Source: an uncultured Erysipelotrichaceae bacterium (GTDB taxonomy: Bacteria > Bacillota_I > Bacilli_A > RFN20 > CAG-826). Taken from it: a stretch of DNA of 58,738 bases. Positions 13,904-52,267 of this stretch are shown in pieces (positions within the stretch are counted from its first letter, which is position 1; each line of letters starts with the position of its first letter). A model generated the notes under the pieces. It was not told the origin of the DNA, made no database searches, and was given only the letters and a program-made list of their open reading frames with translations. Position numbers and translations under genes: made by a program. The DNA lies in contig CACYCS010000046.1 in NCBI GenBank assembly GCA_902773005.1, positions 1 to 58,738 of the forward strand, in the 5' to 3' direction.

Positions 13904-16900
13904 ATGAAAAGAATCATTTTGCGAGTGATTTCCTCAGCGGTCCTTGCCGGCGTAGGGGTCGGATTATTCATCGGAAACAAAATCGCCCTCGTCGATCAAG
14001 AGAGGAACCTCGCGTCGCTTCTAACGCCTCCCATTGTCATGCAGGACGCCGTCCAAGAGAGCCGCGCTTCCGGTCAAAAGATGTCCAAACGGATCGTTGA
14101 GGAAGGCTCCGTTTTGCTCAAAAACAATGGCACGCTCCCCCTGAAAAAGGAAAAAGCCGATTTCGTGAACGTCTTCGGGTGGGCATCAATCGACTGGGCG
14201 TATGGAGCAAATTCCGCCTCTTGCTCCGGCCGAGTCATGGCCGAAGACGATACCCGCGCATCCTTATTGGATTTCTATGACGCGCTCACTTCATATGGCA
14301 TCGAATACAATCAGGGCCTCAAGGCGATGTACAACCACTTTGCCTCGCCTTATGTTTACGCCACCAAGACGCCTGACGCCATCAACAATAGCAACGTCAT
14401 CACCCTCCATGAGCCGAATATCGAGGACAGGAATTACTATTCCGAGGAACTTTTGCAAGAGGCGTTAGACTATTCCGACACCGCTTTCGTCGTCATCGTG
14501 CGCAACGCCGGCGAAGACATCCCGGCAGATCGAGCGATGTCAAAAGCGGGAGCTGGGGCAACGAGTGAGCCAGGCAAGATCTACCTAGACCTCTCGATTG
14601 AAGAGGAGAAGCTTTTGACCTATGTCGGCGAGAACTACGATAACGTCGTCGTCCTCATCAACTCTCCAGCCGCGATGGACCTGTCTTTCCTAAATGAGAT
14701 TTCAGGCATCGATGCCGCGATGCAGGTCGGCTTTACCGGAACCCAAGGGGCAGAAAAGATCCCCGAACTCCTCTATGGTGAGGTATCGCCTTCTGGAAGA
14801 TTGGTCGATACCTACGCCTATGACCGCAACTACTCCTTCGCTTACAAAGCCAAGAACGCCGTGAATTTCTCCTCTGGCCTAACGGATAAACGCTTCTTCG
14901 ACTACATCGAGAACATCTACGTCGGATACAAATGGTATGAGACCGCTGACAAGGAAGGCTATTGGGATTCGTATTCTCGCGAAGTGCTTGACGCCCAAGA
15001 CCAGGAAATCACAGTCGAGGGATTTGACGCCGTCGTCCAATATCCGTTCGGATATGGCCTGAGCTATTCGACGTTCTCCTATGAGTTAGTTGAAGTAAGC
15101 CACACGAAAGACGGGCAAGCCATTGACCATTTCGATAAGGATGGCGAGATGCATTTCCGCGTCAAAGTCACCAATACGGGCAACGTTCCAGCCAAAGACG
15201 TCGTGCAGATTTATCTCGAAGCGCCCTATGTCGCAGGCGGAATCGAGAAGAGTTCCAAGAATCTCGTCGGGTATGAGAAAACCGTTACGCTAAACGCCGG
15301 GATCTCCCAAGTTCTAGATATTGAAGTCCAAAGTCGCGACCTCGCATCCTATGATTGCTACGACAAAAACGAGGATGGGCATACGGGCTACGAAATCGAA
15401 AGCGGCCACTACCTCTTCCATATCGCTTCCGACTCCCATCGCGATCTAGCTATCGCCTCCTCGCTTCCAGAGTTTCATGGCGGAGTATATGACTTTGAGA
15501 TAAGCAGCAAGATCAATATCGACAAAGACAAATACACCGGAGCCGATGTCGATAACCTCTTCACGGGAGAGGATGCTCGCGATGGCTATCCGCTTGACGC
15601 CATTGAAGGCGGAACCTCACCCGAGTATCTCTCGCGCGAAGAATTCCCAGATCTAGAGGCATTCGAAGGCGTGAAGCCGCGCCCTGCGACCCAAAAGCTT
15701 CAGGACACCTATTTCTTCACCCGCGCCAAAGGCAATGCGTGGGATTCGAGCGATGAGGATTTCTTCGGCGAGCCAATCGACGATACTCCCGTCATCTGGG
15801 GCGAAGAAAATGGCCTGAGCATTTATGAGGATAACGCCGTGACGGACCTTGGCTTCCGCCTTGGCGCAGATTACGATGCCCCCGAATGGGAAGAACTCCT
15901 TGAGCAAGTAAGCGTCAACGATGCGCTCAACACCATCAACAAATCCTATGGCACGCCTGCCCTGAATTCGATTGGAAAACCCAAATGCAACGAGGTCGAT
16001 GGCCCCGCTCAGATCAAGTGCTACTATCAATCCAAACCGCGCGGAACAGGTTATCCTGACGCGGTCGTGCTCGCCCAAACCTGGAATAAGGACCTCGCCG
16101 TCGAATTCGGCCTCTCCTTCGCTCAGGATATGATCAGCGTTGGCATCCACGGCCTTTGGGGTTGGGGATGCAACCTCCACCGCACGCCAGTGGGAGGGAG
16201 GAATTGGGAGTATTTCTCTGAGGACCCCTATCTCTCTGGCAGCGTCTTATCCAAAGCCTGCTCTGGGTTACTAAAAGGCGGACGCTACTCCTACATCAAG
16301 CATTTCTGCCTCAACGAAAGCGAAACGGCCAAGGTCGAAGGCTTCACCTTCACAACCGAGCAAGCCTATCGCGAAGCTTATCTCAAGCCATTCCAGATGG
16401 CGATTGAAGAGGGCGGCGCGGTTGGCGTCATGACGAGTTTCAACCGCATCGGCGCCGTATATTCCGGCGGCTCTGAAGCCTCAATCACCGGTGTGCTCCG
16501 CGGCGAATGGGGATTCAAGGGATCCATCATCACCGACTGGGCCAATAATGGCGGCTACATGTCGATCGACCACCAGCTCCGCGCCGGAGGAGATCTCGGC
16601 ATGAACAACAACCTGAACGGCTATTCGGGCGCGACCTTCGATTATTCCGCCAACGGACCGATCAGGCTGCAAAGAAGGATGAAGGATGCCGTGCATCACG
16701 TCGTTTATACCTTCCTTCGCTCGCAATACCTCAACAAGGAATACAACGAGAACCCCGATACCGATTCCAAGATCGTCCAGGTGGCCTCGATCGAATCCTT
16801 TGCCTGGTGGAAGATGCTCATCGTCGACATCGATATCCTCTTAGGAGGCGGGGCGCTGCTATTCTTCGTGCTCACGATGTTGCCGGCTGAGAAAAAGGAA

Positions 16901-17196: not shown

Positions 17197-19257
17197 ATGA
17201 AGAACAATCGTCTTGCCTTTGCCTTATTCCTTGCATTTCCCGTTCTTTTCGCCTGCGCCTCTTCTTCTTCAATCGAAGAAAGCAAAAGCGAAGAAATAGA
17301 AGAGAGGCTCGAGGAGAACGAGACGCGCGTCAAGGTCGAAAGCGGCAAAGCAAAAGTCTATTGGAATGCCTCGGGCTATGACGGATTCGAGGTCTATGGC
17401 TCCGAGAGCAAGTACGGGAACTATCGCTTAATCAGCGGAGACGTCCCAATTAAGGAAAGCCATTTCGTCACGCCGTCTTACCGCTATGGCTATTACAAAG
17501 TCCTCGGCGTAAAGGGCTCGGAAAAGATCGAATTTGGCGGCACGTCCTCCGTATTTGGCGATGAAACCCTCATCGTTTCTAGCGGCGATGACATGGCAAA
17601 AGTCCAAGCGGAAATCGAGGAACGCCACTCACACCTAGAAAGCTCTTGGGAGGGCCAATTCTCCTCCTCTAGGTTCGCAGCCTTATTCTACCCAGGCGCC
17701 TATCCCGATATCGAAATGAAGCTAGGCTACTATTCCTCCGCCCTTGGCCTTGGAGCCACGCCCTATGCAACCGAGCTAGGAAGCCTATATGTCTCGACTG
17801 AGATTCTAAGCAACAACAACTCGACCTGCACCTTCTGGCGCAACGCGATGAATCTATCCTTCCCCGAATCGACGCAATTCGCCGTTTCGCAAGCTACTTC
17901 TCTCCGCAGATGCCATTTCGCGAAGAATCTATACCTCTCCCATCCATCGGGATGGAGCTCAGGCGGATTCCTCGCCGATAGCGTCATCGAAGGGCGAATC
18001 GAATCGCGCACCCAGCAGCAATGGATGAGTCGAAACGACGAATTCGCCTCTTGGGTCGGAGCAAGCCATAACTATGTGTTTTCAGGATGCGCTGGCGGAG
18101 TTCCTTCTAGCGCATGGTCCGAGCGCACATCCCGCACTTCCGTGGAAGAGAAATGCGACAAAATCGCCGAGTCACCATTCCTATATGACGGGGAATCCGG
18201 GCTAAGCGTTTTCGTGCCCTCTATTCGCGAAAACGCGACAGGGGTTAGCTATTCTAGGGAAAACATGGGCCAAGGCAAGGTTATTTCCTTAGACGATTTC
18301 CATATCGCTTCCCCGCTTCGCGACAATGCGGCAACCCTCAACAAAGCCCTCGCCGATGGACGCCATATCCTATTTGCCCCAGGCATCTATAGCCTGGAGG
18401 CGCCGCTTCATATCACTAAGCCCAACACCATCGTGATGGGAATTGGATACGCCACCTTGCAGATTGCTAACGGAAGAGGCGGGGTCGAAATCGATGACGT
18501 CGATGGGGTTAGGCTATCGCAACTGCTCGTCGACGCGGGAGAAGGGTCGCATTTCATGGTCCGCGCAGGGTTAGAGAAAAGCGAGCTACGCCACGAGAAG
18601 AACCCCACTGTCCTAAGCGATTTGTTCTGCCGAATCGGCGGGAAAGAGAACGCCCATACCGAATGCGACGTATCCGTGATCATCAACTCAAACGACGTGA
18701 TCGGCGATAATTTCTGGCTATGGAGGGCCGACCACTCTAGAGGAGTCGCATGGGATGACGTAGATAACGGCAGGGACGGCATCAATTATGGAAATCCCGC
18801 CGCGAACGGTTTGCTCGTCGAAGGGGATCATGTAACTTGCTATGGCCTCATGGTCGAGCATTTCGAATCCTATCAAACCCTTTGGAAAGGGGAATATGGG
18901 AAAGTCGTGATGTATCAATGCGAAGTCCCATATAACGTCCCATCGCAGGATCATTGGAAAAGCGAATCGGGCGAGCGCGATGGGTGCGCAGCCTATAAGG
19001 TCGACCCATCGGTCAAAAACCATTATGGCCTTGGATTAGGCGTCTATTGGGTGCACTACTCCTATGATTTCCTCGAGAACGCTTTCGAGTGCCCCGATGC
19101 AGAAGGCGTGAAACTAGAGCACCTTGTCACCACCACTTTCTCCGGCAGCGGCAATGGCGGCATCCGCCACGTGGTAAATGGCTTCGGAGGCGCGGTCGGC
19201 GAAGGCGGGTCCTCTAGGTCGCTAGTCGAAATCTATCCTGCGCCTGCGCAAGAATAA
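17197..19257 (+). CDS. Lipoprotein with right-handed beta-helix, GH55-like
   Basis: 686 residues. Lipoprotein signal with lipobox LFAC (Cys20), a Glu-rich linker, a small fibronectin-like segment (about 45-110), then a long pectate-lyase-type parallel beta-helix. Several segments match a family related to GH55 beta-1,3-glucanases, often annotated as coagulation factor 5/8 type proteins: GWSSGGFLADSVIEG then TQQQWMSRND around residues 250-278, ILFAPGIYSLEAPLHITKPN, and ANGLLVEGDHVTCYGLMVEHFESYQTLWKGE. I infer a secreted glucan-acting enzyme, but the exact reaction is unproven and no catalytic acid can be assigned by eye. It precedes a GH5 gene by 67 nt, consistent with a shared polysaccharide target such as beta-glucan. 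Confidence 0.7.
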   Translation: MKNNRLAFALFLAFPVLFACASSSSIEESKSEEIEERLEENETRVKVESGKAKVYWNASGYDGFEVYGSESKYGNYRLISGDVPIKESHFVTPSYRYGYYKVLGVKGSEKIEFGGTSSVFGDETLIVSSGDDMAKVQAEIEERHSHLESSWEGQFSSSRFAALFYPGAYPDIEMKLGYYSSALGLGATPYATELGSLYVSTEILSNNNSTCTFWRNAMNLSFPESTQFAVSQATSLRRCHFAKNLYLSHPSGWSSGGFLADSVIEGRIESRTQQQWMSRNDEFASWVGASHNYVFSGCAGGVPSSAWSERTSRTSVEEKCDKIAESPFLYDGESGLSVFVPSIRENATGVSYSRENMGQGKVISLDDFHIASPLRDNAATLNKALADGRHILFAPGIYSLEAPLHITKPNTIVMGIGYATLQIANGRGGVEIDDVDGVRLSQLLVDAGEGSHFMVRAGLEKSELRHEKNPTVLSDLFCRIGGKENAHTECDVSVIINSNDVIGDNFWLWRADHSRGVAWDDVDNGRDGINYGNPAANGLLVEGDHVTCYGLMVEHFESYQTLWKGEYGKVVMYQCEVPYNVPSQDHWKSESGERDGCAAYKVDPSVKNHYGLGLGVYWVHYSYDFLENAFECPDAEGVKLEHLVTTTFSGSGNGGIRHVVNGFGGAVGEGGSSRSLVEIYPAPAQE

Positions 19258-19292
19258 GAAGGCTTTTTGAAAGGTTAGGCAAAAAAATCGGC

Positions 19293-19317
19293 TTTTCCTT
19301 TCAAGGAAAACTATATT
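19293..19317 (+). promoter_or_regulatory. Perfect inverted repeat overlapping a TATATT -10
   Basis: TTTTCCTT-TC-AAGGAAAA (19293-19310) is immediately followed by TATATT (19312-19317), then 7 nt to the ATG at 19325. The repeat fills the -35/-10 spacer, so a bound repressor would block the promoter. CCTTTCAA within it can alternatively pair with TTGAAAGG at 19267-19274. A -35 hexamer is not clear. Confidence 0.45.
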
Positions 19318-19324
19318 GGCCTCA

Positions 19325-20716
19325 ATGAAGAGGAATCGTTTTTCGGTATCGCTTTGCATCGCTTCTTTGGCGTTAGTGGGCTGTAGCTCCGCCTCCACCA
19401 CATCTATTAGCGATGCTTTGGACGCTTCTTCGGATGAGGCTTCTTCCTTCGTCTCGACGAGAAAAGGATACGTATCGGCCAAGGGGAATCTGCTTTATGA
19501 CGGCGATGGGAAGCCCCTATTGCTTCAGGGCACCAATATCGGAGGGCTCTTCTTCCAAGAAAGGTGGATGTCTTTGACCGATGGGGTAGATACCCTCACC
19601 ACCTTCAACACGCTGACCACCCGCTTCTCCAAGGAAGATGCTTGGGACCTATTCGACGAATATCAGGATAACTTCTTCACCACGGAGGACTTCGATAACC
19701 TGCAAAGGCTAGGCATCAATTGCATCCGCCTCCCCATCTCCTACATGGACGTCTACGATTGCGACTTCCAATTGCTCAAGAAAGACGATCCCACAGCCGA
19801 GGAAATCCTCTCCATGAAGATGTCGCTCCGCAAATCGCACCTTGAGAAGATCGATGGCCTCATCAACTCCGCCGAATCCCATGGGATGTATGTCGTATTG
19901 GACCTGCATGGGGCGTTCGGATCGCAAAACGGGAACGACCATTCCCTCGACGCTAGAAGCAGGGATTGGCTATGGAAGCAAGACGAGCTTGGAGATGCTT
20001 ACCGCGAACTCACCCTCGAAGTTTGGGAGCTGCTCGCGGAACGCTACAAGGACTACAAGAACATCGCGGGCTACGACATTCTGAACGAGCCGGCAGGCGA
20101 TAATGGCGATCCGGAAGGCATCACCTACGTCACCACGAAGATCCAATGGGATTACTTCAATAGACTCTACAAAGCGATCCGCAAAATCGATCCGAATCAC
20201 ATCGTGATCATGGAGTCCTGCTGGGGCGCCGAGAACATGCCTCGCCCTGAGGAATATGGCTGGCAGAACGTCGTCTACGAGTTCCACCACTACGAAAGCG
20301 AGTGGGGCGACGAATCGCAGCTCATCTCCTTCCAGAGGCGAATCGATAACATCGTTAGCGCGAACTTAAACATCCCCCTCTATATGGGCGAATTCTGCGT
20401 ACACGCCTCCTACGAAATCTGGAAAACCGTGATTGAGGAATTCCAAGCCAACGACATCTCCTGGACCAGCTGGACCTATAAGGTCAAGGGCGAAAGCGAA
20501 TGGGGTCTATACCTCATCCGCATCCAAAACGAGGAAGGCGAGAACCTGCCGATCTCCGAAACGCCCCATATCTCCAGGGGCAACGACTCCTTTGATGAAA
20601 TCCTCCGCAAATGGGGCAAAGCCCAGCGGGCGGGAGTCCACCAAAACGAAGCCCTCTGCTCCGTCTTCACCGAATGCCTCAAGACGCCTTACGCGCCTAA
20701 GACATCTTCCAACTAG
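19325..20716 (+). CDS. Glycoside hydrolase family 5 lipoprotein
   Basis: 463 residues from the ATG. Lipobox LVGC (Cys20), Ser/Ala linker, then a TIM-barrel GH5 domain from about residue 45. Recognisable pieces: LLLQGTNIGGLFFQERWM, CIRLPISYMDV, YVVLDLHGAFGSQNG, GYDILNEP with the acid/base Glu255, VYEFHHYESEW, and IPLYMGEFCV with the nucleophile Glu356. The GTNIGG.FFQE.WM opening recalls exo/endo-1,3-glucanase-like GH5 members, which would suit the GH55-like neighbour, but specificity is inferred. A TTG at 19316 with AAGGA 8 nt upstream is an alternative start adding MAS. I prefer the ATG because TATATT lies 7 nt upstream, a leaderless arrangement seen at other genes here. Confidence 0.9.
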   Translation: MKRNRFSVSLCIASLALVGCSSASTTSISDALDASSDEASSFVSTRKGYVSAKGNLLYDGDGKPLLLQGTNIGGLFFQERWMSLTDGVDTLTTFNTLTTRFSKEDAWDLFDEYQDNFFTTEDFDNLQRLGINCIRLPISYMDVYDCDFQLLKKDDPTAEEILSMKMSLRKSHLEKIDGLINSAESHGMYVVLDLHGAFGSQNGNDHSLDARSRDWLWKQDELGDAYRELTLEVWELLAERYKDYKNIAGYDILNEPAGDNGDPEGITYVTTKIQWDYFNRLYKAIRKIDPNHIVIMESCWGAENMPRPEEYGWQNVVYEFHHYESEWGDESQLISFQRRIDNIVSANLNIPLYMGEFCVHASYEIWKTVIEEFQANDISWTSWTYKVKGESEWGLYLIRIQNEEGENLPISETPHISRGNDSFDEILRKWGKAQRAGVHQNEALCSVFTECLKTPYAPKTSSN

Positions 20717-20780
20717 GGAATTGGCCGAATCGTAACGATCGGCATCCAAATAAATGCCAAAAGAAAGGAATGCAAAAAAA

Positions 20781-22712
20781 ATGAAAAAGACAAATCTAAT
20801 GGCAACCATTCTACTGTCCCTGTCGTCCATGGCCCTATTAGCGGCCTGCGGCGGAGGCAACGGAGGTGGGACTAGCACCCCCGCATCCCAATCCGAAGCG
20901 GTGACTTACTCCATCACCCTCGATGCCGCCGAAGGCATCACCGTCACCGGGCTTCCCGAGAAGGCCGCCGAGGGAGACCGCGTCTCCTTCACCGTCAGCG
21001 CAGCCGAAGGAAAAGTCGTCGACAAAGTAACCTTCAACGGCGAAGAAATCACTTCCACCACGAGCCGCTATCGCTTCACGATGCCCGCAGCCGCCGTCAC
21101 CGTCAAGATCACGGTCTCCGCGCTCTCTAGCATCACCGCCAACGCCTCCGGCGCAAGGACCGCTTTCTTCGTCGGCAATACCTTCGAATATGAAGGTCTC
21201 GTCGTGAACGCCGTCATCGGCGGCACAGAAAAGCCCATCGCCTCTGGCTACACCGTCTCTACCCCCGACATGACGACCGAGGGAAAGAAGACCGTCACCG
21301 TCACCTATTCCGGCCTAACCGCGACCTATGAGATCATGGTCGGCACCATCGCCGGCAACGATATCGACATCATCGATAAGGATGGCGTCCCCTATTTCGT
21401 TATCTCCGGAACCTACTCCGGCTATGCCGATGTCGCAGCCCTCACCGCAGCGGCGAAGGGCATGGTCAAAGTCGACCTTCAGAACAATGGCGCTTGGACC
21501 CGCTTCTGCACGAGCAGCGAGCTCACCTTCCTCGATAACGGCGAAGGCAAATTCAAAGTCGAGATCGACGTCAGCGAACTTCCTGGCAGCGCCGCCGGAA
21601 CTGGCTACATCCTCCACTTCGGCCTTCCTAACGGCAATGGCGGCACCGGAAGCTCTTCCGACATTGGCCAAGCCGGCGATATGAAGTTTGAAACCGATTC
21701 GGAGAACACCGGCAAAGAACTCGTCGTTGGCAACAGGAAGTACACCATCGCGACCAACGCCGGTTTAGATGGCCAATCCAACTTCTACGGCTGCCCGAGC
21801 CTCACCGTCGTCGATGAATCCGTCCCAACTGCGGCCATCAAGCAGGTTGTTGTCGAGGAAGGCGAAGGCAAGGTCAACGTCGTTCTCAAGGGCGAATTCA
21901 GCAACTTCGACTACACTCAAGATCCAGAACTTGACCACTTCTACCTCGATCTTGTCCAGCTTGGCGGAAGCTACACCAACATCGCTGATGAGGTTGTTTG
22001 GGAGTTCGTCGCCGAGGGAGAAGACAACACCAAGGGTACCTTCAGCGCGACGATCGACGTCACCGGAAAGATGGAGTCGAACTCCTATTACTTCTTCCAC
22101 TACATCTTCGGCGAAGGTGCGAAGACCCAGTCCACCGATGGCCATAACCTCGCTTGGAACAACAAGACCATGGAAACCATGAATCTGACCAATGCAAGCG
22201 GCTCCTATACCGTTGAGCAGATCAACAATGTTAGCGGATTCTCCTGGGCAAACGGCTTAGTCGGCATCCATTATCTCGGCGAAAACTACATCAATCTGGC
22301 CGATGTCGCGATCGCGAATGAAGAAGGCGCGGCCGTCGTCACGATCTCCGGTACCTATAATGGCATCGAGGACGCTGAGAAGTACTACGTCGACATGATG
22401 AGCTTCGACAATCAGGTCCCAGAGTTGGATGGCAAGATCTCGCTTTCGCTCGACAAGGAAGAAGGAGCAGTGAACGGCACCTTCGAGATCAAAGTCGACG
22501 TGACCGGGAAGCTCGCTGCCGAGGCGATCTACTACTTCCACTTCGGGGAAGTCGGATCTAGCGGCAACCGTCCTAACATCTACAAAACCGTTGCCGAAAC
22601 TTCTGTTGAAATCGCTGACGGAACCTATACTCTTGGCACCGCAAGCGGCTATACCGAGAATAGCGATACTTGGCGCAACGGCCTCGCGATCGTTACCTTC
22701 GTTGGGAAATAA
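20781..22712 (+). CDS. Adhesin-like lipoprotein: Ig-like domains plus three unknown beta-modules
   Basis: 643 residues with lipobox LAAC-GGG. An InlB-repeat-like domain (ITLDAAEGITVTGLP...TMPAAAVTVKITV) is followed by a bacterial Ig-like (Big_3-type) domain (SSITANASGARTAFFVGNTFEYEGLVV). Three tandem modules of roughly 150-165 residues follow, each with V.ISGTY/LKGEF, an aromatic-rich middle, G.F...IDVT and a YYFHFG-type strand, then a short ...YTL/YTV closing strand. I do not recognise this module; the same type appears in the 37397-40474 protein. Repetition, surface exposure and enzyme neighbours suggest carbohydrate binding (inference). The ATG at 20781 is preferred because it begins the signal peptide; AAGGA lies 11 nt upstream. 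It follows the GH5 gene by 64 nt and ends at a strong terminator. Confidence 0.8.
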   Translation: MKKTNLMATILLSLSSMALLAACGGGNGGGTSTPASQSEAVTYSITLDAAEGITVTGLPEKAAEGDRVSFTVSAAEGKVVDKVTFNGEEITSTTSRYRFTMPAAAVTVKITVSALSSITANASGARTAFFVGNTFEYEGLVVNAVIGGTEKPIASGYTVSTPDMTTEGKKTVTVTYSGLTATYEIMVGTIAGNDIDIIDKDGVPYFVISGTYSGYADVAALTAAAKGMVKVDLQNNGAWTRFCTSSELTFLDNGEGKFKVEIDVSELPGSAAGTGYILHFGLPNGNGGTGSSSDIGQAGDMKFETDSENTGKELVVGNRKYTIATNAGLDGQSNFYGCPSLTVVDESVPTAAIKQVVVEEGEGKVNVVLKGEFSNFDYTQDPELDHFYLDLVQLGGSYTNIADEVVWEFVAEGEDNTKGTFSATIDVTGKMESNSYYFFHYIFGEGAKTQSTDGHNLAWNNKTMETMNLTNASGSYTVEQINNVSGFSWANGLVGIHYLGENYINLADVAIANEEGAAVVTISGTYNGIEDAEKYYVDMMSFDNQVPELDGKISLSLDKEEGAVNGTFEIKVDVTGKLAAEAIYYFHFGEVGSSGNRPNIYKTVAETSVEIADGTYTLGTASGYTENSDTWRNGLAIVTFVGK

Positions 22713-22734
22713 TCTCTTCAATTCGCTTTCAGGG

Positions 22735-22763
22735 GGAGGAGCTTCGGCTCCTCCTTTTCGTTT
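22735..22763 (+). terminator. Terminator with TTCG tetraloop
   Basis: GGAGGAGC-TTCG-GCTCCTCC followed by TTTTCGTTT. It closes the beta-helix/GH5/adhesin-like unit. Confidence 0.93.
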
Positions 22764-22857
22764 GCAAAGGATATGAGCGAAAAGGCGAAGCTTGCGCCCG
22801 TAAAATGGCGAAGCGTTTTTTCCAGGCGTATCGTGACGGAAAGAAAGGACGAAGGAC

Positions 22858-26446: not shown

Positions 26447-26467
26447 TAGTATGGATTCTAAGTGGAA

Positions 26468-43750: not shown

Positions 43751-46700
43751 TTACGCGACAGGGTCCTTGAAGATGAACGGGGTGATGGCGAAGTAGAGCA
43801 TGCCGATGACGAGGGCTCCGACGATGATGTCGAGGGAGACGATCGCAGGATCGACCCAGTTATATCCCGGAATGACCTCGGTCAAGGTCGGGCGATATCC
43901 GCCATAGGGGTTCGCGGCATATTCTTTCTGCGCAAGCCTCGTGTTGCAGTACATGAAGAGGTAATGCTTCACCACTTCTTTGAGCGCATGGGCCGCTCTT
44001 CCGGTACGGTAATCGAACTTGAGGACAACGTTCATTCCGAAGTCGCCGCCAGCGCGGATCGCCTCATCGGCGTTCATGTACTGGTTGAAGTCGGAATAGT
44101 CGGTGATGACACCGCCTTTAAACCCCCATTCGCCGCGGAGGACGCCAAGCATCAAAGCTTCCGATCCGCCGCACCACTTGCTGCCAACGCGGTTATAGGC
44201 GGTCATGAGGGCGTTCACCCCGTAATCTTCGATTGCGATGCGGAAGGGCTCTAGATAGATTTCGCGCAGCGCCTGCTCGCTCATCCAAGTGTAGAGGGAG
44301 TCGCGCATCGTTTCGGTTTCAGCGGCGACGAAGTGCTTGAGCCAAGCGTACTTGCCGGTATCGCGGATGCCTTTGCAGGCATTGCCGCCGATTAGGCCAG
44401 AGAGGCGAGGATCTTCGGAATAGTATTCGTAGTTGCGGCCAGCGAAGGGCGAGCGATGGCAGTTCATGGCAGGACCATAGACGCCATTGGTGGACTTCAT
44501 GTCGCTTCCCATCGAGAGGCCCCACTCATAGGCGAGGTTCTTGTTGAAGGTCTGGGCGAGGACGGTGGCCATCGGGTAGCCGGTCCCGCGGTTTTCGACG
44601 GAAGCGAAGCTCGAGATCTGGTTCGGACCGTCGATGCTATAGGAGCCAGGAACGCCGAGGGTCGGGATAGCTGGGATGTTCGGGTGGGATTTGTCGACGA
44701 GGGATTTCGCGACGGCATAGGGGACCGTTTCGAGGATCTCTTCCCAGCGCGGATCATCGTAATTGGCAGGATCGCCAAGCTCATATCCGAGTTCGGTTGC
44801 GGTGTTGGCGTCGATGCCGAGGCTCAGATCGGGATCGGCTTCCGCGCCCCAGACGTCGCTATGGAGATCAGCGGGGTCGATGTCGTTGCCGAAGCAATCG
44901 ACGTCAGCCGAATTCCAAGCATTGGCCTTGGTCTGATCGGAGGTGTTGGAACCGGCGAAGAGGACGTTCTGCTTGGTGTTCTCGCCCATCTTTCTGCCGG
45001 TGGCGCGAGCGCCGAAGTGCGGGGCTTCTAGCGGCATGTCGGCATAGGTCATATTCTTGAAGTCGGCGCGGGAGACATAATCGATGTCATCGGCGGCGAA
45101 TTCGTCGTTCGAGCCGTCAATCGAAACTCCATCGATCGCGTCTTCGCCGGTGAAGAGGGTCTTGATTTCAACGCCGGTATGCTCGTCTTTGTCGAGGATG
45201 ATGTCATTATCGGCGGAAAGGAGGATCTCGCCATCGACGAGGGCTCCGCTTGCATTATGGACGACTTTCATATGATGGGAGTCGGTCTGTAGGCGGAGGC
45301 GATAATCGCCTTTGTCGATTTCATAGGTCGCGTGTTGATTGTGGTTCAGGTCATAGCAATCGAAGGAAGCGAGATCGCGCGCCTTGGCATTCAAGGTGAC
45401 GGTGGTCTTTCCGCCGGGCTCAAGGGTTTGGGTCTTTGCGAAGTCGACGAGATTCACATAGGCTTTCTCCACGCCGCCTGGGTTATATTGCGGGACGGAA
45501 TAGAGCTGGACGACCTCTTTGCCAGCGAAATCGCCGGTATTCTCGACGTTGACGAAAATCTCAAGGTTGGTATCGGCGGTGAGCTTAGCACCGGAATGGA
45601 CTTCCTCATGGGTATTCGCGTCGCGAATCTGGGCGAGCGTCCAATCGAAGGTCGTGTAGCTCATGCCATAGCCAAATGGAAATTGGACGACGGCGTCATA
45701 GCCTTTCTTGGTGATCATGGCGTCGTTGTCGTCGAGGGCATTTAGTGTCGCATCGGCGAACGCGCCTTCGGCATCGGCGGTCTCGAAGTAGCGATAGCCG
45801 ACGTAGACGCCTTCCACGTAATCGAGGTAAGGGAGCGAGGGGCGGGAGGAGATGCCGCCGTTAGTGGTCTGATTCACGCCATAGGGGAGATCGGTGTTGT
45901 CGTAGAAGTCGACGCCGTCATATCCGGAATACTGGAAGTAGAGGGTCTTCTGGAAATCGTAGGGAAGCGTATCGGCGAGGTGGCCGGAGAAAGTTGCTTC
46001 GCCGAAGAGGAGCTTCGGGATGGCGTTAGCGCCTTTTTCGCCAGTCGCGCCGACCATGACGCAGGCATCGATTCCAGGGATGTAATCCAAGAAATCGAGC
46101 TGGAAGGCGTTGGTGGAATTGATGACCACCACCACTTTCTCGAAGTTTTCGGCCGCGAATTCGAGAAGTTCTTCCTCAACCTCGGACACCTGCAGGCCGT
46201 GGCGGGTATTATCGACTTTCGCCGAGGGCGAGGAGAGATATTGGACGGTGCCAGGGAGATCATCGGATTCGCCACCTTGACGCGACAAGACGACGATCGC
46301 GGTGTCATTCTCATCGGCTGCGTCCATCAGGAGGTCGCTATAGTGCTGGTTGGCCGAGGGGCTAGGATCTCTGAGGCCATACATCGACGCGCCGGCGTTA
46401 TCCATGTTGTTATTGAGCGAGTTGATGTCATGCTTGATGCCACCGAGACCGCGATAGAAGGAGATCAGCTCCTGCGCGGTTTCGTTAAGGGAGATGCCGT
46501 CATTTGCGAATGCGTCGACCAGATCATCCATGTCATCCCAATTGTTGTCTTTGGTCTCCGCAAGGACGCGGCCAGAGCCGGACCCACCATAGATCCACTG
46601 GACGGCGCCGAAGCCTAGGATCGCGATGTTGTTGTTTGCGCTTGCTTTAGATAGCGGCAATACGCCTTTCTTGTTTTGAAGCAGAACTGCGCCTTCTTCT

Positions 46701-46912
46701 TCGACTTGCTCGGCGAGTTCGTGACCCGATTTCACGGTCGAGGGCTTGCTAGGCTCGCCATCGTCGACCACGCGGTAGGTGGTCGGGACGAGGACGGTCT
46801 TGATCGCCTCGGCGTTCTCGCGGTAGATGGAATTGCCGATCACGATTCCGGTCACGGCAGCCGCGGAGAGGACGCCAAGGACGGCGGCGCGAACGATTTT
46901 GCCTGTTTTCAT
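43751..46912 (-). CDS. Membrane-anchored glycoside hydrolase family 3 (permuted), GH3-5
   Basis: 1053 residues from the ATG at 46912. An earlier ATG at 46918 lies too close to GAGGAA, so the second ATG is preferred. N-terminal span (about 5-26), EEGAVLLQNKKGVLPLS, fibronectin-III part after FPFGYGMSYTTFDWTLAQI, a long linker, then the barrel with NCHRSPFAGRNYEYYSEDPRLSG and KHFVAAETE. The nucleophile lies in VITDYSDF (Asp938), where Tyr replaces the usual Trp. The C-terminal span is IVSLDIIVGALVIGMLYFAITPF. It is the largest GH3 of the set because of extra loops in the first domain (for example SSPSAKVDNTRHG). First gene of a three-gene unit. Confidence 0.92.
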   Translation of the reverse strand: MKTGKIVRAAVLGVLSAAAVTGIVIGNSIYRENAEAIKTVLVPTTYRVVDDGEPSKPSTVKSGHELAEQVEEEGAVLLQNKKGVLPLSKASANNNIAILGFGAVQWIYGGSGSGRVLAETKDNNWDDMDDLVDAFANDGISLNETAQELISFYRGLGGIKHDINSLNNNMDNAGASMYGLRDPSPSANQHYSDLLMDAADENDTAIVVLSRQGGESDDLPGTVQYLSSPSAKVDNTRHGLQVSEVEEELLEFAAENFEKVVVVINSTNAFQLDFLDYIPGIDACVMVGATGEKGANAIPKLLFGEATFSGHLADTLPYDFQKTLYFQYSGYDGVDFYDNTDLPYGVNQTTNGGISSRPSLPYLDYVEGVYVGYRYFETADAEGAFADATLNALDDNDAMITKKGYDAVVQFPFGYGMSYTTFDWTLAQIRDANTHEEVHSGAKLTADTNLEIFVNVENTGDFAGKEVVQLYSVPQYNPGGVEKAYVNLVDFAKTQTLEPGGKTTVTLNAKARDLASFDCYDLNHNQHATYEIDKGDYRLRLQTDSHHMKVVHNASGALVDGEILLSADNDIILDKDEHTGVEIKTLFTGEDAIDGVSIDGSNDEFAADDIDYVSRADFKNMTYADMPLEAPHFGARATGRKMGENTKQNVLFAGSNTSDQTKANAWNSADVDCFGNDIDPADLHSDVWGAEADPDLSLGIDANTATELGYELGDPANYDDPRWEEILETVPYAVAKSLVDKSHPNIPAIPTLGVPGSYSIDGPNQISSFASVENRGTGYPMATVLAQTFNKNLAYEWGLSMGSDMKSTNGVYGPAMNCHRSPFAGRNYEYYSEDPRLSGLIGGNACKGIRDTGKYAWLKHFVAAETETMRDSLYTWMSEQALREIYLEPFRIAIEDYGVNALMTAYNRVGSKWCGGSEALMLGVLRGEWGFKGGVITDYSDFNQYMNADEAIRAGGDFGMNVVLKFDYRTGRAAHALKEVVKHYLFMYCNTRLAQKEYAANPYGGYRPTLTEVIPGYNWVDPAIVSLDIIVGALVIGMLYFAITPFIFKDPVA

Positions 46913-47008
46913 TGTCATTTCCTCTTGGTAATGCCCTTCACTCGCCGAATACTGGTCGCGTGAAAATGGGCTCTATTTCGTTGGTTAGGATTCTAATGCT
47001 CCGCAAAA

Positions 47009-47060: not shown

Positions 47061-48410
47061 TCAGATGCTTTGGGTTTCTTCTTTGGAAGGAGGGATCGGA
47101 AGGAGGATTGAGAGGGTGAAAATCTCGCCGGTGGCGGAGATTTGCATATCTCCATCGTACTTGTTGACCATGTAGCGGATCGACTTGAGGCCATAGCCGT
47201 GGTTGATCTTGTCCTTCTTGATGGTCACGGGCAAGCCGCCAGAGAAGACCATGTTCGGGTTGTCGTATCGATTCGATTCGACGATCGAGACGAAATTCTT
47301 CTTAACTCTAACCGAGAGGCTGATGGAACGCTTCTCGGGGACTAGAGGCAAGACGGCTTCAATCGCGTTGTCCAAGATGTTCGAGAAGAGGGCGAAGGTA
47401 TCGGATTCGCTTAGGAACTCCACGGATTTGCCATCGACGATGAAGGACAAGGGGATTGAGTTCTTTTCAGCAATCAGGGCTTTCTCAGAAAGCACGAGGT
47501 CGAGGGATGGGTTGCCCGTTTGGGCGAAGGAGTCATAGATTGAGATGACTTGGTTCATCTCTTCAATCACTTCTGGCGAGAGGGATTTGCTTTTGCCGAA
47601 TTCGCGGAGCTGATGCTTCAGGTCATGGACTTTGATCTGAACTAGCTCTGCGTTCTCCTTGGAAAGGCGGTACTGCTCCCTCTCTTTGGAGCGGACGATC
47701 TTAAGAAACGCAACGTCTTCGTTGAGCTTGTTGCGGTAAGAGATCTCGAACTGGACGGCGAGCGAAAGGACGCAAAGCATGACCGACGCCGCATCGACGC
47801 AGCAAAGGACTTGGTAAGGGGCGTTGGAGGCGAATTCGATGACGAGCGAATTGATGAGGGCGTCAGAGAATACGCAGACAAGCGCCATGATGAAGATGGC
47901 GCGGGAACGGTAAGAGATGGCTTCGTTTTTCCTGATGCGTCGGCCATAGATCCAGTAGACCAGCCAATAGATGAGGAGGTAAACCGCGGCATAGATCACT
48001 AACTGAGCCGGCCCGCCGAACAAAGTGATCTTGGTCGTTTCATAGAAAGCGCCCGTGGTTTCTGCAAGGCGAGTCGAAAGAAGAATCAGGTCATAGGCCT
48101 CATAGGCAAGATGCTGAAGAGAGAAGCCCGCGAGGGCGCAGAAGGCGATCGTGATCCAGTCGGTGTCGAGGAAGATCATCGCCGCGAAGAAAGAAACGGT
48201 GAACATGCCGACGAAGGACGCGACCGACACGGCGGCGTTAGAGATGGTTGGGACGGTGAAGGACGCGCCAAGGCAAAGAACAATCGCAAGGGGCACGCGC
48301 CAAAATGCGCCTTTACGGAACTTGAGACGGTGGAAGAAAAGGAATTCCGCCACCAAAAGCTCAGCCATGAACAAAGCGTGGTAAAAGAAAAGTGAATTAA
48401 TCTCGTACAT
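47061..48410 (-). CDS. AgrC-type sensor histidine kinase (GHKL)
   Basis: 449 residues: six predicted spans in the first 225 residues, a short coiled linker, then a HPK10-type kinase. The phosphoacceptor box is VHDLKHQL (His262), the N box FSNILDNAIEA and the G box NHGYGLKSIRYMV. This architecture is typical of quorum or peptide sensors that signal to LytTR regulators, which matches the gene 3 nt upstream. No AgrB protease or AgrD peptide gene is nearby, so the ligand is unknown. It may control the adjacent GH3 genes (inference). Confidence 0.9.
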   Translation of the reverse strand: MYEINSLFFYHALFMAELLVAEFLFFHRLKFRKGAFWRVPLAIVLCLGASFTVPTISNAAVSVASFVGMFTVSFFAAMIFLDTDWITIAFCALAGFSLQHLAYEAYDLILLSTRLAETTGAFYETTKITLFGGPAQLVIYAAVYLLIYWLVYWIYGRRIRKNEAISYRSRAIFIMALVCVFSDALINSLVIEFASNAPYQVLCCVDAASVMLCVLSLAVQFEISYRNKLNEDVAFLKIVRSKEREQYRLSKENAELVQIKVHDLKHQLREFGKSKSLSPEVIEEMNQVISIYDSFAQTGNPSLDLVLSEKALIAEKNSIPLSFIVDGKSVEFLSESDTFALFSNILDNAIEAVLPLVPEKRSISLSVRVKKNFVSIVESNRYDNPNMVFSGGLPVTIKKDKINHGYGLKSIRYMVNKYDGDMQISATGEIFTLSILLPIPPSKEETQSI

Positions 48411-48413
48411 CGA

Positions 48414-49121
48414 TCAATTGCCTTTCTGGAAATACTCGTTGAGCGCTTTGACGAACCCCTTCCTTCTCGGATGGGACACGACGAGGCAAGTTGAGCCCAA
48501 ATAGGCTTCATACCCCTGAACGGAATCGACGTAGCGGAGGTTCACCAGATAGCACGAATTGCATTTGTAGAAGGATTCGCCTTCGAGGTCATCCTCCAAT
48601 TTGCGGAGGACGCCATAGGTCTCATAATCTCCGCGGGTGGTATGGTAAACGATCTTATGACCCTGGATTTCGACGTAACGGATGTCGGAAACAAGAATCG
48701 CCACATGTTGCGAGCCGGTCTTGATGAGAATCTTCTTCTCATGCCTTTGGCGGAGGCGCTCCATCAAGCGGTCCATCTTGAATTCGAGGTCTGGATAATT
48801 GACGGGCTTCACGATGAAGTCATAGGCGTTCACCTCATACCCCTTCACGGCGAATTGGGCGAGGTTCGTCACGAATATCAGCGTGATGTCGTTATCGATC
48901 TTCCTTAGGCTTTCGGCGGTTTGCATTCCAGAGAGCCCAGTCAACGCGATATCCAAGAACACGAGGTCAAAGCCTTTGCTATAGCCTTCTAGGAAGCTTT
49001 CACCGGAAGGGAAATGGGTGATCTTGAACTCCTCATTGCGCGCTGAAGAATACGAGTTGAGAGCCCTGACTAGGACAGCAAGTTCATCCGGATTGTCTTC
49101 AACGATGGCGATACGCAGCAT
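48414..49121 (-). CDS. LytTR-family response regulator (AgrA type)
   Basis: 235 residues. The receiver domain (1-120) has the acidic pair Glu8-Asp9, phosphoacceptor Asp57 in LVFLDIALTG, Thr85 and Lys105 in FIVKPV. The LytTR DNA-binding domain (about 130-235) shows IRYVEIQGHKIVYHT, YGVLRKLEDDLEGESFYKCNSCYLVNLRYV and VVSHPRRKGFVKALNEYF. First gene of the two-gene regulatory unit. Divergent from GH3-6, whose promoter region contains a short direct repeat that could be a target. Confidence 0.92.
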   Translation of the reverse strand: MLRIAIVEDNPDELAVLVRALNSYSSARNEEFKITHFPSGESFLEGYSKGFDLVFLDIALTGLSGMQTAESLRKIDNDITLIFVTNLAQFAVKGYEVNAYDFIVKPVNYPDLEFKMDRLMERLRQRHEKKILIKTGSQHVAILVSDIRYVEIQGHKIVYHTTRGDYETYGVLRKLEDDLEGESFYKCNSCYLVNLRYVDSVQGYEAYLGSTCLVVSHPRRKGFVKALNEYFQKGN

Positions 49122-49154
49122 TCCTCAAATCCCCTTGGCCAAATCGCAGAAATA

Positions 49155-49179
49155 CGCATACGTGTGTATGGCGCATACG
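49155..49179. promoter_or_regulatory. Direct repeat CGCATACG upstream of the regulator gene
   Basis: CGCATACG at 49155-49162 and again at 49172-49179 (17-bp period). It overlaps ATACGTGTGTAT (49158-49169), a weak form of the interspersed motif. It lies 34 bp upstream of the response regulator ATG. The period differs from the 21-bp spacing usual for LytTR sites, so autoregulation is only a possibility. Confidence 0.35.
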
Positions 49180-49366
49180 CTCCTGCACTTGTATAAGTAT
49201 ATTTTGCGATTTCGTTTCGCATCGGGCAAGTTTCATAATTTCAATATTGGAGATCAATCCGGGTCGATAACTCACCTTTATGGCAGCCTAAAATGTCGAA
49301 AAATCACAAGCCGAGGAAACGAAAACAAGACAGGGGTCAATTCTTTTTGCCAAATCGGCTATTTCT

Positions 49367-49395
49367 TTGACTTGTCTCTGACTCGCGGACATAAT
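49367..49395 (+). promoter_or_regulatory. Promoter giving a leaderless GH3-6 mRNA
   Basis: -35 TTGACT (49367-49372), 17-nt spacer, -10 CATAAT (49390-49395), then 7 nt to the ATG at 49403. The predicted transcription start coincides with the A of the ATG, and there is no Shine-Dalgarno. Confidence 0.65.
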
Positions 49396-49402
49396 AGTGG
49401 CC

Positions 49403-52267
49403 ATGAGCAAAGATAAGAGTCAATTGCGCTCATCCGCTTTCCACTTCTCACTCGCGGGAATTCTCGCTGGTTTTCTAGCGGTCATCAACATCGCTTGCTT
49501 CTCCTATCCAAAAGAGGTCGGTTACCTCATTTATGGCTCACCGATCCGCTTCGACGATGAGACGGCGGTCAAGGCAAGGGAATCGGGCAAGGAGCTTGCC
49601 GACAAAATCGCCGGCGAAGGCATCGTGCTCTTGAAAAACGAGAATAACGTTCTGCCTCTCAAAGACAAAGAAATCAATCTCTTTGGAATAGGGGCCACTA
49701 GCGGGGGCTTCGTCCATAGCGGCGGCGGAAGCTCATTGACGAGCTCATACGGGAGAAAGACCCTTTTCGAATCGCTGACGCTTGCTGGTTTGCAGCCCAA
49801 CGCCGAACTTGCTGAATACTATGAATCATTCAATTTTAATCGCATGTCCTCATCGTATGCCGAAAAAGCATTCCGTCTTTTCGAGGCTCCGATCGTTGAT
49901 GATGATCCCGATGCACTAGAGGCAAGCGTCAATTACAGCGACGTGGCCGTATATGTTCTCTCTCGCCCTGCGACGGAGAAACTTGACCTGCCGTTTGGCC
50001 AATATGACATAGATGGCCATTTGGATGCCACAAGGTCTTACTTAGGGCTTACGGCGCAGGAAGAGAAAACCCTGGATTACCTCAAATCCAACTTCTCGAC
50101 CCTTGTTCTCGTTTTGAATTGCGCCTCCCCGATGGAACTGCCTTTCTACGATGACCCAGAGATCGACGCCATCATCCAGCTTGCTTATCCTGGAAATACA
50201 GGCGCCGTTTCGCTTGGAAGAATCTTGACGGGCGAAATAAACCCAAGCGGAAGGACCGTCGATACGTTCGCCACGTCCATCGTTTACAACCCCACGACAG
50301 TAAATTCATCGACGAAGGGGAATCACATTTATCGCGACAAAGCCCGCTATGTTGACTACGCGGAATCGATTTACGTTGGCTATCGTTACTATGAGACAGC
50401 CCTCACCGAGGCGAACTACTCGCATGTCGTTGCCTATCCCTTTGGGCACGGCCTAAGCTACACGTCATTCTCCTGGGAGTTATCCTCCTTCGAATTCACT
50501 CCGTCTGGCAAAGCAACAGCCTCGCTATCGAACGGTTCAACATTAGCCGAAGACGGCACGATATCCCTATCGATTTGGGTGGAAAATACGGGCAACGTTT
50601 CAGGCGCGGATGTCGTTGAAATCTTTGCAGAACCCCCATATTACGATGGGGAAATCGAAAAAAGCGCTGCAAATCTAGTTGCCTTTGAGAAAACGGCGAT
50701 CCTAGAGCCGGGTAAGGGTGAGCTTGTTGAATTATCTTTCCCGCTCCGCTCCTTGGCTAGTTACGATTGCTATGACGCCAATGAAAATGGATTCATCGGC
50801 TACGAACTCGAAGATGGCGAATATGCGATTCATATACGCAAGAACGCCCACGAAGATCATCCATTGAAGGAGGGGCAATCGACCATTCGATTCAGGCTAT
50901 CGGATTCTATTCGTTACCAAAACGACGATTCGACTGGCCGTCCCATCAAAAACCTATTCACAACCTACAAGAATCCCAAGACATCCGCCGAAAGCGCAAT
51001 CGAGGAAAAGGAATCCCCATTGAGCTATTCCATCGACGGAGGCGATGCTGAACAAAACATCACTTACTTGTCTCGCGCGAACTTTAATGCCACTTTCCCA
51101 AAAGAAACGCCAACAAGAAGCATGTCCACCGAGATGTACAACAAGAACTTCGTCACCCACATCCCGACAGTCAATCTTAATGACGAACATCCACAGTTCT
51201 CCGTCCCTACAACTTTCACCATTGCTGACGGCATTGGAAAAGAATATGACGATCCCATATTTTTAAAGCTCGTCCAGCAATGCAGCAAGTCGGAGTTGAT
51301 CGATTTCATCCTCCGCGCAGGATTTGGCACCGCCGCCATCCCTTCCATCGGGAAGCCGGAATGCATCGATCTCGATGGGCCCTGCGGGCTGAACACAACC
51401 GTCTTGGCCCATACCCCAGGCGAAGCGACAAGCTATCCATGCGCCAGTTTGCTTGCAAGCAGCTACAACAAATCGCTTGCCTACCGTTTCGGGGAAGCCG
51501 TTGCCGAGGAAGCGAAGGCATTGGGCGTTAACGGATGGTACGCTCCCGCTGTTAACATCCATCGTTCCCCACTAGGCGGAAGAACGTTCGAGTATTTTAG
51601 CGAAGACCCATATCTTTCCGGCGAGCTAGCGAGTTATGTTTGCATGGCCGCTGTAGAAGGGGGCCTCTACTGCTATCTAAAGCATTTCGTCGCTGACGAG
51701 AACGAATCTGGAACCAATTCACAATACCATTGGCTAACCGAGCAAGCCCTGCGCGAAATCTATGCAAAGCCATTTGAGATTGCCATCAAGAAAGCAAACG
51801 TGAACGCGCTTATGATGTCAAAGAATCGCATTGGCTCAGTCCGTTGCAGCGGATCTACCGCTTTATTGCAATCCCTATTACGGGAAGAATGGGGCTTTAA
51901 GGGATCTGTCATCAGCGACTACTACATCGCTGGCGACACCAATGATGCCGACGAAGCGATACGCGCCGGCTGCGACCTTTCCCTCGATGGCGAAGGGTCC
52001 GCGAAATTCGATGATACAACTAGCGCAACTTTCGAGATTGCGCTCCAGACTTCCGCCGCCCATGCGATCTATACCTATTGCTCGACGATGCATCGCGCCA
52101 ACACCGCGCAAGGCCTATCCTTCAATCATTACACTGGAAAGAAAGAAGACGGGCAGAATGGATGGCGCTATATCCTCATCGCCATCGATGCTGTCGGAGC
52201 AGCCGGAATCGGGCTATACGTTTTCTTGGTAGCGTGGGCAAAAAAGCGCAAATCCATTGAAAAATAA
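49403..52267 (+). CDS. Membrane-anchored glycoside hydrolase family 3 (permuted), GH3-6
   Basis: 954 residues from the ATG at 49403 (a GTG 6 nt earlier is possible). N-terminal span HFSLAGILAGFLAVINIACF, then AGEGIVLLKNENNVLPL, fibronectin-III part after YPFGHGLSYTSFSWELSSF, barrel with NIHRSPLGGRTFEYFSEDPYLSG, KHFVADENES and VISDYYIAG (Asp839, with Tyr in place of Trp as in GH3-5). The C-terminal span is YILIAIDAVGAAGIGLYVFLVAW followed by a KKRKSIEK tail. A/T-ending codons look more frequent than in the other GH3 genes, which may reflect a different history. Divergent from the two-component unit. Confidence 0.91.
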   Translation: MSKDKSQLRSSAFHFSLAGILAGFLAVINIACFSYPKEVGYLIYGSPIRFDDETAVKARESGKELADKIAGEGIVLLKNENNVLPLKDKEINLFGIGATSGGFVHSGGGSSLTSSYGRKTLFESLTLAGLQPNAELAEYYESFNFNRMSSSYAEKAFRLFEAPIVDDDPDALEASVNYSDVAVYVLSRPATEKLDLPFGQYDIDGHLDATRSYLGLTAQEEKTLDYLKSNFSTLVLVLNCASPMELPFYDDPEIDAIIQLAYPGNTGAVSLGRILTGEINPSGRTVDTFATSIVYNPTTVNSSTKGNHIYRDKARYVDYAESIYVGYRYYETALTEANYSHVVAYPFGHGLSYTSFSWELSSFEFTPSGKATASLSNGSTLAEDGTISLSIWVENTGNVSGADVVEIFAEPPYYDGEIEKSAANLVAFEKTAILEPGKGELVELSFPLRSLASYDCYDANENGFIGYELEDGEYAIHIRKNAHEDHPLKEGQSTIRFRLSDSIRYQNDDSTGRPIKNLFTTYKNPKTSAESAIEEKESPLSYSIDGGDAEQNITYLSRANFNATFPKETPTRSMSTEMYNKNFVTHIPTVNLNDEHPQFSVPTTFTIADGIGKEYDDPIFLKLVQQCSKSELIDFILRAGFGTAAIPSIGKPECIDLDGPCGLNTTVLAHTPGEATSYPCASLLASSYNKSLAYRFGEAVAEEAKALGVNGWYAPAVNIHRSPLGGRTFEYFSEDPYLSGELASYVCMAAVEGGLYCYLKHFVADENESGTNSQYHWLTEQALREIYAKPFEIAIKKANVNALMMSKNRIGSVRCSGSTALLQSLLREEWGFKGSVISDYYIAGDTNDADEAIRAGCDLSLDGEGSAKFDDTTSATFEIALQTSAAHAIYTYCSTMHRANTAQGLSFNHYTGKKEDGQNGWRYILIAIDAVGAAGIGLYVFLVAWAKKRKSIEK

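What the first reader, a model, noticed from the sequence alone, without database searches (positions are those of the whole stretch)
13904..52267. Six permuted GH3 enzymes, each with membrane spans at both ends, in one 38-kb region
All six GH3 genes (13904, 28754, 32458, 40698, 43751, 49403) put the alpha/beta-sandwich domain first, the fibronectin-III part in the middle and the catalytic barrel last. Each has a hydrophobic segment near both termini with positive residues on the cytoplasmic side. Reversed domain order is known for some rumen GH3 enzymes (Ruminococcus albus, Butyrivibrio), but a clustered family of double-tethered forms suggests a membrane-surface trimming platform instead of secreted enzymes.
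Basis: partly seen in the sequence, partly recalled or inferred. Interest (0 to 1): 0.6.

Follow-up and report, generated by a model that had tools for sequence, protein, structure and literature searches.

The report
Membrane-tethered sugar-trimming enzymes with paired sensors
This gut bacterium, which appears to lack a cell wall, carries many sugar-cutting enzymes held in the cell membrane at both ends, and their genes repeatedly sit beside the same kind of sensor-switch genes, which suggests self-regulated digestion at the bare cell surface; the enzyme type is known, but this scale and this conserved pairing had only been hinted at.

Summary
All six GH3 genes are intact. Each has domain order GH3_C – Fn3 – GH3_N, an invariant acid/base Glu and nucleophile Asp, and one hydrophobic span near each end with basic residues on the predicted inside. 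The same genome has seven more full-length relatives; six have spans at both ends. The permuted fold is known (GlyA1), and "GH3 with a C-terminal TMH near LytTR regulators" was noted in one sentence for Butyrivibrio proteoclasticus in 2010.

Added here: (1) Membrane-anchored permuted GH3s group on one side of a tree branch and span Bacillota and Actinomycetota. (2) Their genes are repeatedly linked to AgrC-type kinase / LytTR regulator pairs: 42 of 56 such kinases in 11 congeneric genomes lie within 8 kb of a GH3; AgrB was not found. (3) Promoters in these loci are enriched for direct repeats at exactly 21 bp, the LytTR-site spacing. (4) No PBP transpeptidase, FtsW/RodA or sortase was found in 15 genomes of the genus, and the window's other recognisable exported proteins are lipoproteins.

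The copies are scattered on the tree, so not one local duplication. Retention of the N-terminal span is likely but unproven. Best reading: membrane-surface exo-β-glycosidases under local two-component control.

The parts
13904..16912 (+). GH3 A, 1002 aa: N-terminal span 5-23, GH3_C 70-388, Fn3 432-511, GH3_N 713-884, C-terminal span 972-990
   Evidence: nearest relative 68% identical, in L044, which also carries the HK/RR pair
28754..31834 (-). GH3 B, 1026 aa (true start probably Met 22): spans 29-47 and 1001-1019
32458..35424 (+). GH3 C, 988 aa: spans 8-26 and 961-979; the position equivalent to TnBgl3B Asp58 is Asn
40698..43625 (-). GH3 D, 975 aa: spans 9-27 and 947-965; Fn3 below the Pfam threshold but its conserved columns present
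43751..46918 (-). GH3 E, 1055 aa: spans 9-27 and 1031-1049; directly downstream of the HK, same strand (probable RR-HK-GH3 operon)
49403..52267 (+). GH3 F, 954 aa: spans 15-33 and 924-942; divergent from the RR; modelled structure
47061..48410 (-). AgrC-type sensor kinase (GHKL, PF14501), about six N-terminal membrane spans, no recognisable extracellular sensor domain
48414..49121 (-). LytTR response regulator (PF00072 + PF04397)
49122..49402 (.). Divergent RR / GH3 F intergenic region; no 21-bp direct repeat of 8/9 found in this particular region
2075..9964 (-). Context: sugar ABC importer (two SBP_bac_8 lipoproteins, two permeases, MalK-like ATPase) and an SNase-like lipoprotein
17197..28735 (.). 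Context: lipoproteins with lipobox - unknown 686 aa, GH5, Ig-like/InlB-repeat, ThuA, CotH, GH88

Best explanation
The six genes encode catalytically competent, exo-acting GH3 beta-glycosidases of the permuted (GlyA1-type) order. The catalytic body sits outside the cell and is held to the cytoplasmic membrane by one helix at each end (N-in, C-in). Permutation opens the fold at the barrel-sandwich linker, so both ends leave the ectodomain at nearly the same place and can enter the same membrane. Where there is no wall or sortase, this keeps terminal-sugar cropping at the membrane, next to lipoprotein enzymes and importers. The enzymes belong to an old family whose genes repeatedly travel with an AgrC-type kinase and LytTR regulator. 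The regulator likely binds 21-bp-spaced direct repeats in the GH3 and RR promoters, so a given enzyme is induced by an external cue, probably a sugar rather than an Agr peptide. Shown by sequence: domain order, spans, catalytic residues, gene linkage, promoter repeats, missing wall genes. Inferred: outside location, retention of the N-terminal span, substrate, direct regulation, cue.
For: Domain order and spans. Acid/base Glu192 and nucleophile Asp839 (numbering of F), plus the -1-subsite Arg, Lys and His (TnBgl3B R130, K163, H164), are invariant in 47 members with spans at both ends, from two phyla. AlphaFold model pLDDT 85.7, pTM 0.88, with long helices at 9-34 and 916-953. Best structural matches are the permuted PDB entries 5wug/5wvp (Z 42.7/42.5) and 5k6l-o (Z 37), aligned over about residues 50-914 only, so just the two end helices are extra. 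Model residue 912 aligns with TnBgl3B 313 and residue 64 with 326, so both span attachment points flank what is a linker of about 12 residues in the unpermuted enzyme. Kinase linkage: 37 of 56 strong AgrC-type kinases lie within 5 kb of a GH3 against 5.2 expected, 42 of 56 within 8 kb, and no strong kinase that shares a contig with a GH3 lies farther away. 40 of 121 long GH3s but 1 of 36 short GH3s have such a neighbour. Strong kinases occur in 12 of 13 congeneric genomes with long GH3s and 0 of 18 without. 34 of 42 kinase-GH3 pairs are on the same strand. Other taxa: 23 of 40 double-span loci carry HK or RR genes, 0 of 16 soluble ones. Promoter repeats: lag 21 bp in 9 GH3/RR promoter regions against 0.8 in shuffles, 13 against 2.1 in other promoters of the same loci, 1 against 0.8 in convergent regions; 12 against 2.4 in kinase-bearing loci of the other set. 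Wall loss: no PF00905, PF01098 or PF04203 match in 15 genomes. Lipobox on the other recognisable exported proteins of the window. No AgrB.
Against: The N-terminal span could be a cleaved signal peptide: signal peptidase I is present in the genus, and in B. proteoclasticus Bgl3A the segment was called a signal peptide (PMC5217386). That paper also found Bgl3A in the cytosolic and not the membrane fraction, with contamination possible. The window's own RR/GH3 F intergenic region lacks a 21-bp repeat of 8/9. Only about a third of long GH3s have a kinase within 5 kb. The tree gives essentially one switch between soluble and anchored forms (two changes at least), so the 23/40 against 0/16 contrast is not made of independent events. 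Kinase and GH3 distances correlate overall (r 0.76) but not within a genome. Substrate is unknown: TnBgl3B Arg64 is replaced in all 47 members.
Confidence: 0.72

Rival explanations
1. Type I membrane proteins: the N-terminal segment is a signal peptide that is cut off, and only the C-terminal helix anchors the enzyme. Surface trimming remains, double tethering does not.
For: Short basic N-terminus and a hydrophobic core of normal length; signal peptidase I present; signal-peptide call for Bgl3A of B. proteoclasticus (PMC5217386).
Against: Several relatives have two to five N-terminal spans directly before the ectodomain (G000 contigs C181 and C56), where the last span cannot be an ordinary cleaved signal. 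A motif right after the span is conserved (I/V/L at position 39 in 44/47, L/M/F at 44 in 41/47, G at 45 in 28/47). The modelled helix is continuous. Cleavage-like sites look poor in A, B and F but plausible in C, D and E (my reading).
Confidence: 0.25
2. The anchored GH3 is a co-sensor: it is a physical or enzymatic partner of the AgrC-type kinase (which has no external sensor domain), either binding the glycan itself or releasing the sugar that the kinase senses, in the way transporter-coupled kinases work.
For: RR-HK-GH3 gene order recurs across genera and phyla, with HK-GH3 gaps often under 150 bp in the genus; kinases without recognisable external domains; no AgrB peptide processor.
Against: Operon linkage is equally expected for simple target-gene control. 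Many anchored GH3s have no kinase nearby. No within-genome co-phylogeny.
Confidence: 0.15
3. Local tandem expansion of one GH3 gene gave the cluster, with no special surface role.
For: Six copies in 38 kb.
Against: The G000 copies are interleaved with relatives from other taxa; starred branches force at least 9 changes. The paralogues are only about 25-35% identical.
Confidence: 0.04

Closest known systems
GlyA1 (rumen metagenome, PDB 5K6L-O; PMC5104943) and P. barengoltzii beta-glucosidase (5WUG/5WVP)
   Same: Sandwich - Fn3 - barrel order, catalytic Glu in the sandwich and Asp in the barrel, fold over residues 50-914
   Different: The GlyA1 paper reports no membrane spans. Soluble permuted relatives fall outside the anchored group on the tree (GlyA1 itself was not put on the tree)
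BrGH3A (rumen; PMC11233000)
   Same: Permuted GH3, beta-glucosidase
   Different: 814 aa, no signal peptide, proposed intracellular
Butyrivibrio proteoclasticus GH3 enzymes near LytTR regulators (PMC2914790) and Bgl3A (PMC5217386); B. hungatei bgl3D, C-terminal TMH (PMC5716241)
   Same: GH3 with a C-terminal membrane helix; in B. proteoclasticus all three LytTR regulators lie near such a GH3
   Different: One sentence, one species; N-terminus of Bgl3A treated as a signal peptide; no promoter or cross-phylum analysis; three copies rather than 13 to 20 or more
AgrC/AgrA quorum sensing
   Same: GHKL_5 kinase and LytTR regulator families, 21-bp direct-repeat spacing
   Different: No AgrB match in 11 genomes; partner gene is a glycosidase
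Bacteroidota PULs with hybrid two-component regulators
   Same: Surface glycan-degrading enzymes encoded beside their own sensor-regulator (established knowledge)
   Different: Unrelated regulator type and anchoring; no SusC/SusD among the window genes annotated here

Membership tests
Glycoside hydrolase family 3 | GH3_N barrel and GH3_C sandwich domains above the Pfam cut-off | tested here: met
   all six
Glycoside hydrolase family 3 | Nucleophile Asp and acid/base Glu at the TnBgl3B D242 / E458 positions | tested here: met
   invariant in 47 of 47
Glycoside hydrolase family 3 | Retaining beta-glycosidase activity | not testable with these tools
   needs an assay
GlyA1-type permuted GH3 (ABS-FLD-ABB) | Domain order sandwich - Fn3 - barrel | tested here: met
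GlyA1-type permuted GH3 (ABS-FLD-ABB) | Structure superposes over the whole permuted body | tested here: met
   Z 37-42.7, about 730 residues, rmsd 2.5-3.0, model of GH3 F only
Double-span membrane-anchored permuted GH3 | One or more spans at both ends | tested here: met
   hydropathy, model helices
Double-span membrane-anchored permuted GH3 | N-terminal span retained in the mature protein | tested here: inconclusive
   multi-span relatives and the juxtamembrane motif favour it; no signal-peptide predictor or proteomics available
Agr-type two-component system | GHKL_5 kinase plus LytTR regulator | tested here: met
Agr-type two-component system | AgrB/AgrD peptide signal | tested here: not met
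   no PF04647 (AgrB) match in 11 genomes; the short AgrD peptide was not searched for

The most novel reading that the evidence does not exclude
A new class of enzyme-coupled signalling: a permuted GH3 held by a helix at each end is the extracellular sensor arm of an AgrC-type kinase that lacks its own sensor domain, so hydrolysis or binding of a glycan at the membrane directly switches the LytTR regulator and the enzyme's own gene. Wall-less rumen Bacilli would have multiplied this module into a membrane-based counterpart of Bacteroidota PULs.
Probability: 0.13. Interest if true: 0.8.

Novelty: new variant of a known kind. Interest (0 to 1): 0.5.

Why it matters
It offers a testable account of how an uncultured, wall-less gut Bacilli lineage could keep plant-glycan breakdown at its bare membrane. 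It also turns a one-line remark about Butyrivibrio into a cross-phylum GH3 / AgrC / LytTR module with predicted operator sites. What AgrC-type kinases without AgrB sense is often unknown; here a specific partner and a specific DNA motif can be tested.

Tried and rejected
Agr-type peptide quorum sensing: AgrB not found. Tandem duplication: disfavoured by the tree. Within-genome co-evolution of each kinase with its GH3: no signal; the strong overall correlation comes from orthologues. A first, unmasked promoter scan gave an inflated lag-21 peak partly due to codon periodicity, so it was repeated on intergenic DNA with convergent regions as control. The window's own RR/GH3 F intergenic region: no 21-bp repeat. 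Sigma-70 and terminator scans: no more sites than in shuffles. Measuring the distance between the two spans in the model was not possible (coordinates not exposed); linker alignment was used instead. The soluble/anchored contrast cannot be treated as independent events. Literature searches for a described double-anchored GH3 or a GH3/LytTR module beyond Butyrivibrio gave nothing relevant.

Full report
WHAT WAS CHECKED. The six ORFs are present at the stated coordinates, without internal stops, 954-1055 aa. Pfam gives GH3_C then GH3_N in all six, Fn3-like in between in five; in the sixth (40698) the Fn3 columns that are invariant in 47 relatives are present. Each protein has one hydrophobic span within its first ~50 residues and one within its last ~35, none between. 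The N-terminus before the first span and the tail after the last are basic, predicting N-in, C-in and an external body.

CATALYSIS. The acid/base Glu (RxxxE, TnBgl3B E458) and nucleophile Asp (TnBgl3B D242) are invariant in 47 double-span members, as are R130, K163 and H164 of the -1 subsite; D58 is Asn in 10 of 47 and R64 is replaced in all. So the enzymes look active but probably differ in specificity from plain beta-glucosidases (inference). No substrate is assigned.

STRUCTURE. An AlphaFold model of GH3 F from 47 sequences has pLDDT 85.7 and pTM 0.88, with helices 9-34 and 916-953. The closest solved structures are the permuted enzymes 5wug/5wvp and GlyA1, aligned over about 50-914; only the two end helices are extra. 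In unpermuted TnBgl3B, the residues matching model positions 912 and 64 are 313 and 326. The two attachment points are thus joined by a short linker in the unpermuted fold, so permutation places both ends together. That makes a two-ended membrane anchor geometrically natural (inference; coordinates could not be measured).

THE REST OF THE GENOME. The genome (G000, 2.30 Mb, 187 contigs, 82% complete) has 17 GH3 loci. Besides the six, seven full-length permuted ones lie elsewhere: five with one span at each end, one with four N-terminal spans plus one C-terminal, and one with two N-terminal spans and none at the C-terminus. One more is truncated at a contig end. Three non-permuted ones have no span. 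The genus (31 genomes) is uneven: 11 genomes have 6-27 GH3s, mostly 940-1,400 aa or longer, and the other 20 have none to six, nearly all 900 aa or shorter.

THE PARTNER GENES. In the window a GHKL (AgrC-type) kinase and a LytTR regulator lie between GH3 E (same strand) and GH3 F (divergent). This recurs. Of 56 strong PF14501 kinases in 11 genomes, 37 are within 5 kb and 42 within 8 kb of a GH3 (5.2 expected within 5 kb by uniform placement); the other 14 lie on contigs with no GH3. 40 of 121 long GH3s but 1 of 36 short ones have such a neighbour. Strong kinases occur in 12 of the 13 genomes with long GH3s and in none of the 18 without; genomes are related, so this is not 31 independent trials. 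AgrB was not found.

OTHER TAXA. Of 80 relatives fetched from 85,000 species genomes, 68 permuted proteins could be scored: 41 have spans at both ends, 16 none, the rest one end only or cut by a contig end. HK or RR genes are present in 23 of 40 double-span loci and 0 of 16 soluble ones, in Lachnospiraceae, Oscillospiraceae, Bifidobacteriaceae, Atopobiaceae and Promicromonosporaceae. On the tree nearly all anchored forms lie on one side of a branch (57 rows) and the soluble ones on the other; the G000 copies are scattered, with at least nine changes forced. The anchored type is thus old, the contrast is largely one evolutionary event, and the window genes are not a recent local expansion. One of the six (C) was not placed on the tree because the motif used to cut out its core was not found.

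PROMOTERS. LytTR regulators of the AgrA kind bind direct repeats about 21 bp apart (established knowledge). In intergenic DNA of the genus loci, 9-mers matching in 8 or more places at lag 21 occur in 9 GH3/RR promoter regions against 0.8 in shuffles (maximum 3), in 13 other promoter regions against 2.1, and in 1 convergent region against 0.8; no other lag from 10 to 45 stands out as strongly in the GH3/RR set. Kinase-bearing loci of the other set show 12 against 2.4 at lag 21 (two of these from L066, same genus); kinase-free loci show no sharp peak. Examples: L020 upstream of a GH3 in this genome (CACTTTTTGCCA, 21 bp apart) and L053 (CAGTTGCGG). L127 and L139 are orthologues and count once. 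The window's own RR / GH3 F region shows no such repeat.

CELL ENVELOPE. PBP transpeptidase, FtsW/RodA and sortase were not found in 15 genomes of the genus, including ones rated 100, 97 and 95% complete, while control genomes ring. Signal peptidase I is present. Twelve other exported proteins recognised in the window - SNase, two SBPs, 17197, GH5, InlB-repeat, ThuA, CotH, GH88, Big_2 and two tyrosine-phosphatase-like proteins - have lipobox-type signals. This fits the peptidoglycan-deficient, sortase-less RFN20 families of PMC10868615, though the family of this genome was not identified. In such cells the membrane is the surface, so lipid or helix anchors are the available options. The anchored GH3 itself also exists in relatives from typically walled groups, so it is not an invention of wall-less cells; what is special here is the number.

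WHAT WAS KNOWN. Permuted GH3: GlyA1 (PMC5104943), BrGH3A (PMC11233000). C-terminal TMH GH3: B. hungatei bgl3D (PMC5716241), B. proteoclasticus Bgl3A (PMC5217386). [quoted passage not shown] I found no paper on the double anchor, the cross-phylum linkage, or the promoter repeats; the library holds open-licence papers only.

VERDICT. Real, mostly explained, and a variant of a known kind. The trimming-platform idea is reasonable; the regulatory pairing is the more useful lead. Most open: whether the N-terminal span is retained, what the substrate is, and whether the enzyme is only a target or also part of the sensor.

Noticed in passing
window 2075-54359 (non-GH3 exported genes): All twelve other recognisable exported proteins in the window carry a lipobox-type signal; none looks freely secreted.
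   Followed up: yes
window 35627-37279 and 52389-54359: Two lipoproteins with tyrosine-phosphatase-like domains (Y_phosphatase3) placed among the GH3 genes; extracellular substrate unclear.
   Followed up: no
window 24131-26347: CotH-kinase-domain lipoprotein among carbohydrate-active genes.
   Followed up: no
window 17197-19257: 686-aa lipoprotein with no Pfam or NCBIfam match next to GH3 A.
   Followed up: no
L146, L148, L152, L153, L154, L156: Giant anchored GH3s of about 1,400-1,600 aa in sister genomes, some with the RR/HK order reversed and more divergent kinases.
   Followed up: no
L019:10217-13183 and L023:48-3425: Topology variants in the same genome: a permuted GH3 with two N-terminal spans and no C-terminal one, and one with four N-terminal spans plus one C-terminal.
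   Followed up: partly
L041, L043, L048, L050, L051, L056, L114: In other genera a canonical ~820-aa GH3 with a conserved basic C-terminal tail (MVNGHFF...) sits right beside the anchored permuted GH3.
   Followed up: partly
L139:686-1026, L022:12028-12134, L127:5940-6047: Similar repeat pairs (CAGTTTTTG or its complement, 21 bp apart) precede different genes in different loci and genomes, suggesting one kind of regulator with several targets.
   Followed up: partly
window 10414-12775: Two adjacent RDD-family membrane proteins next to tRNA-Lys.
   Followed up: no
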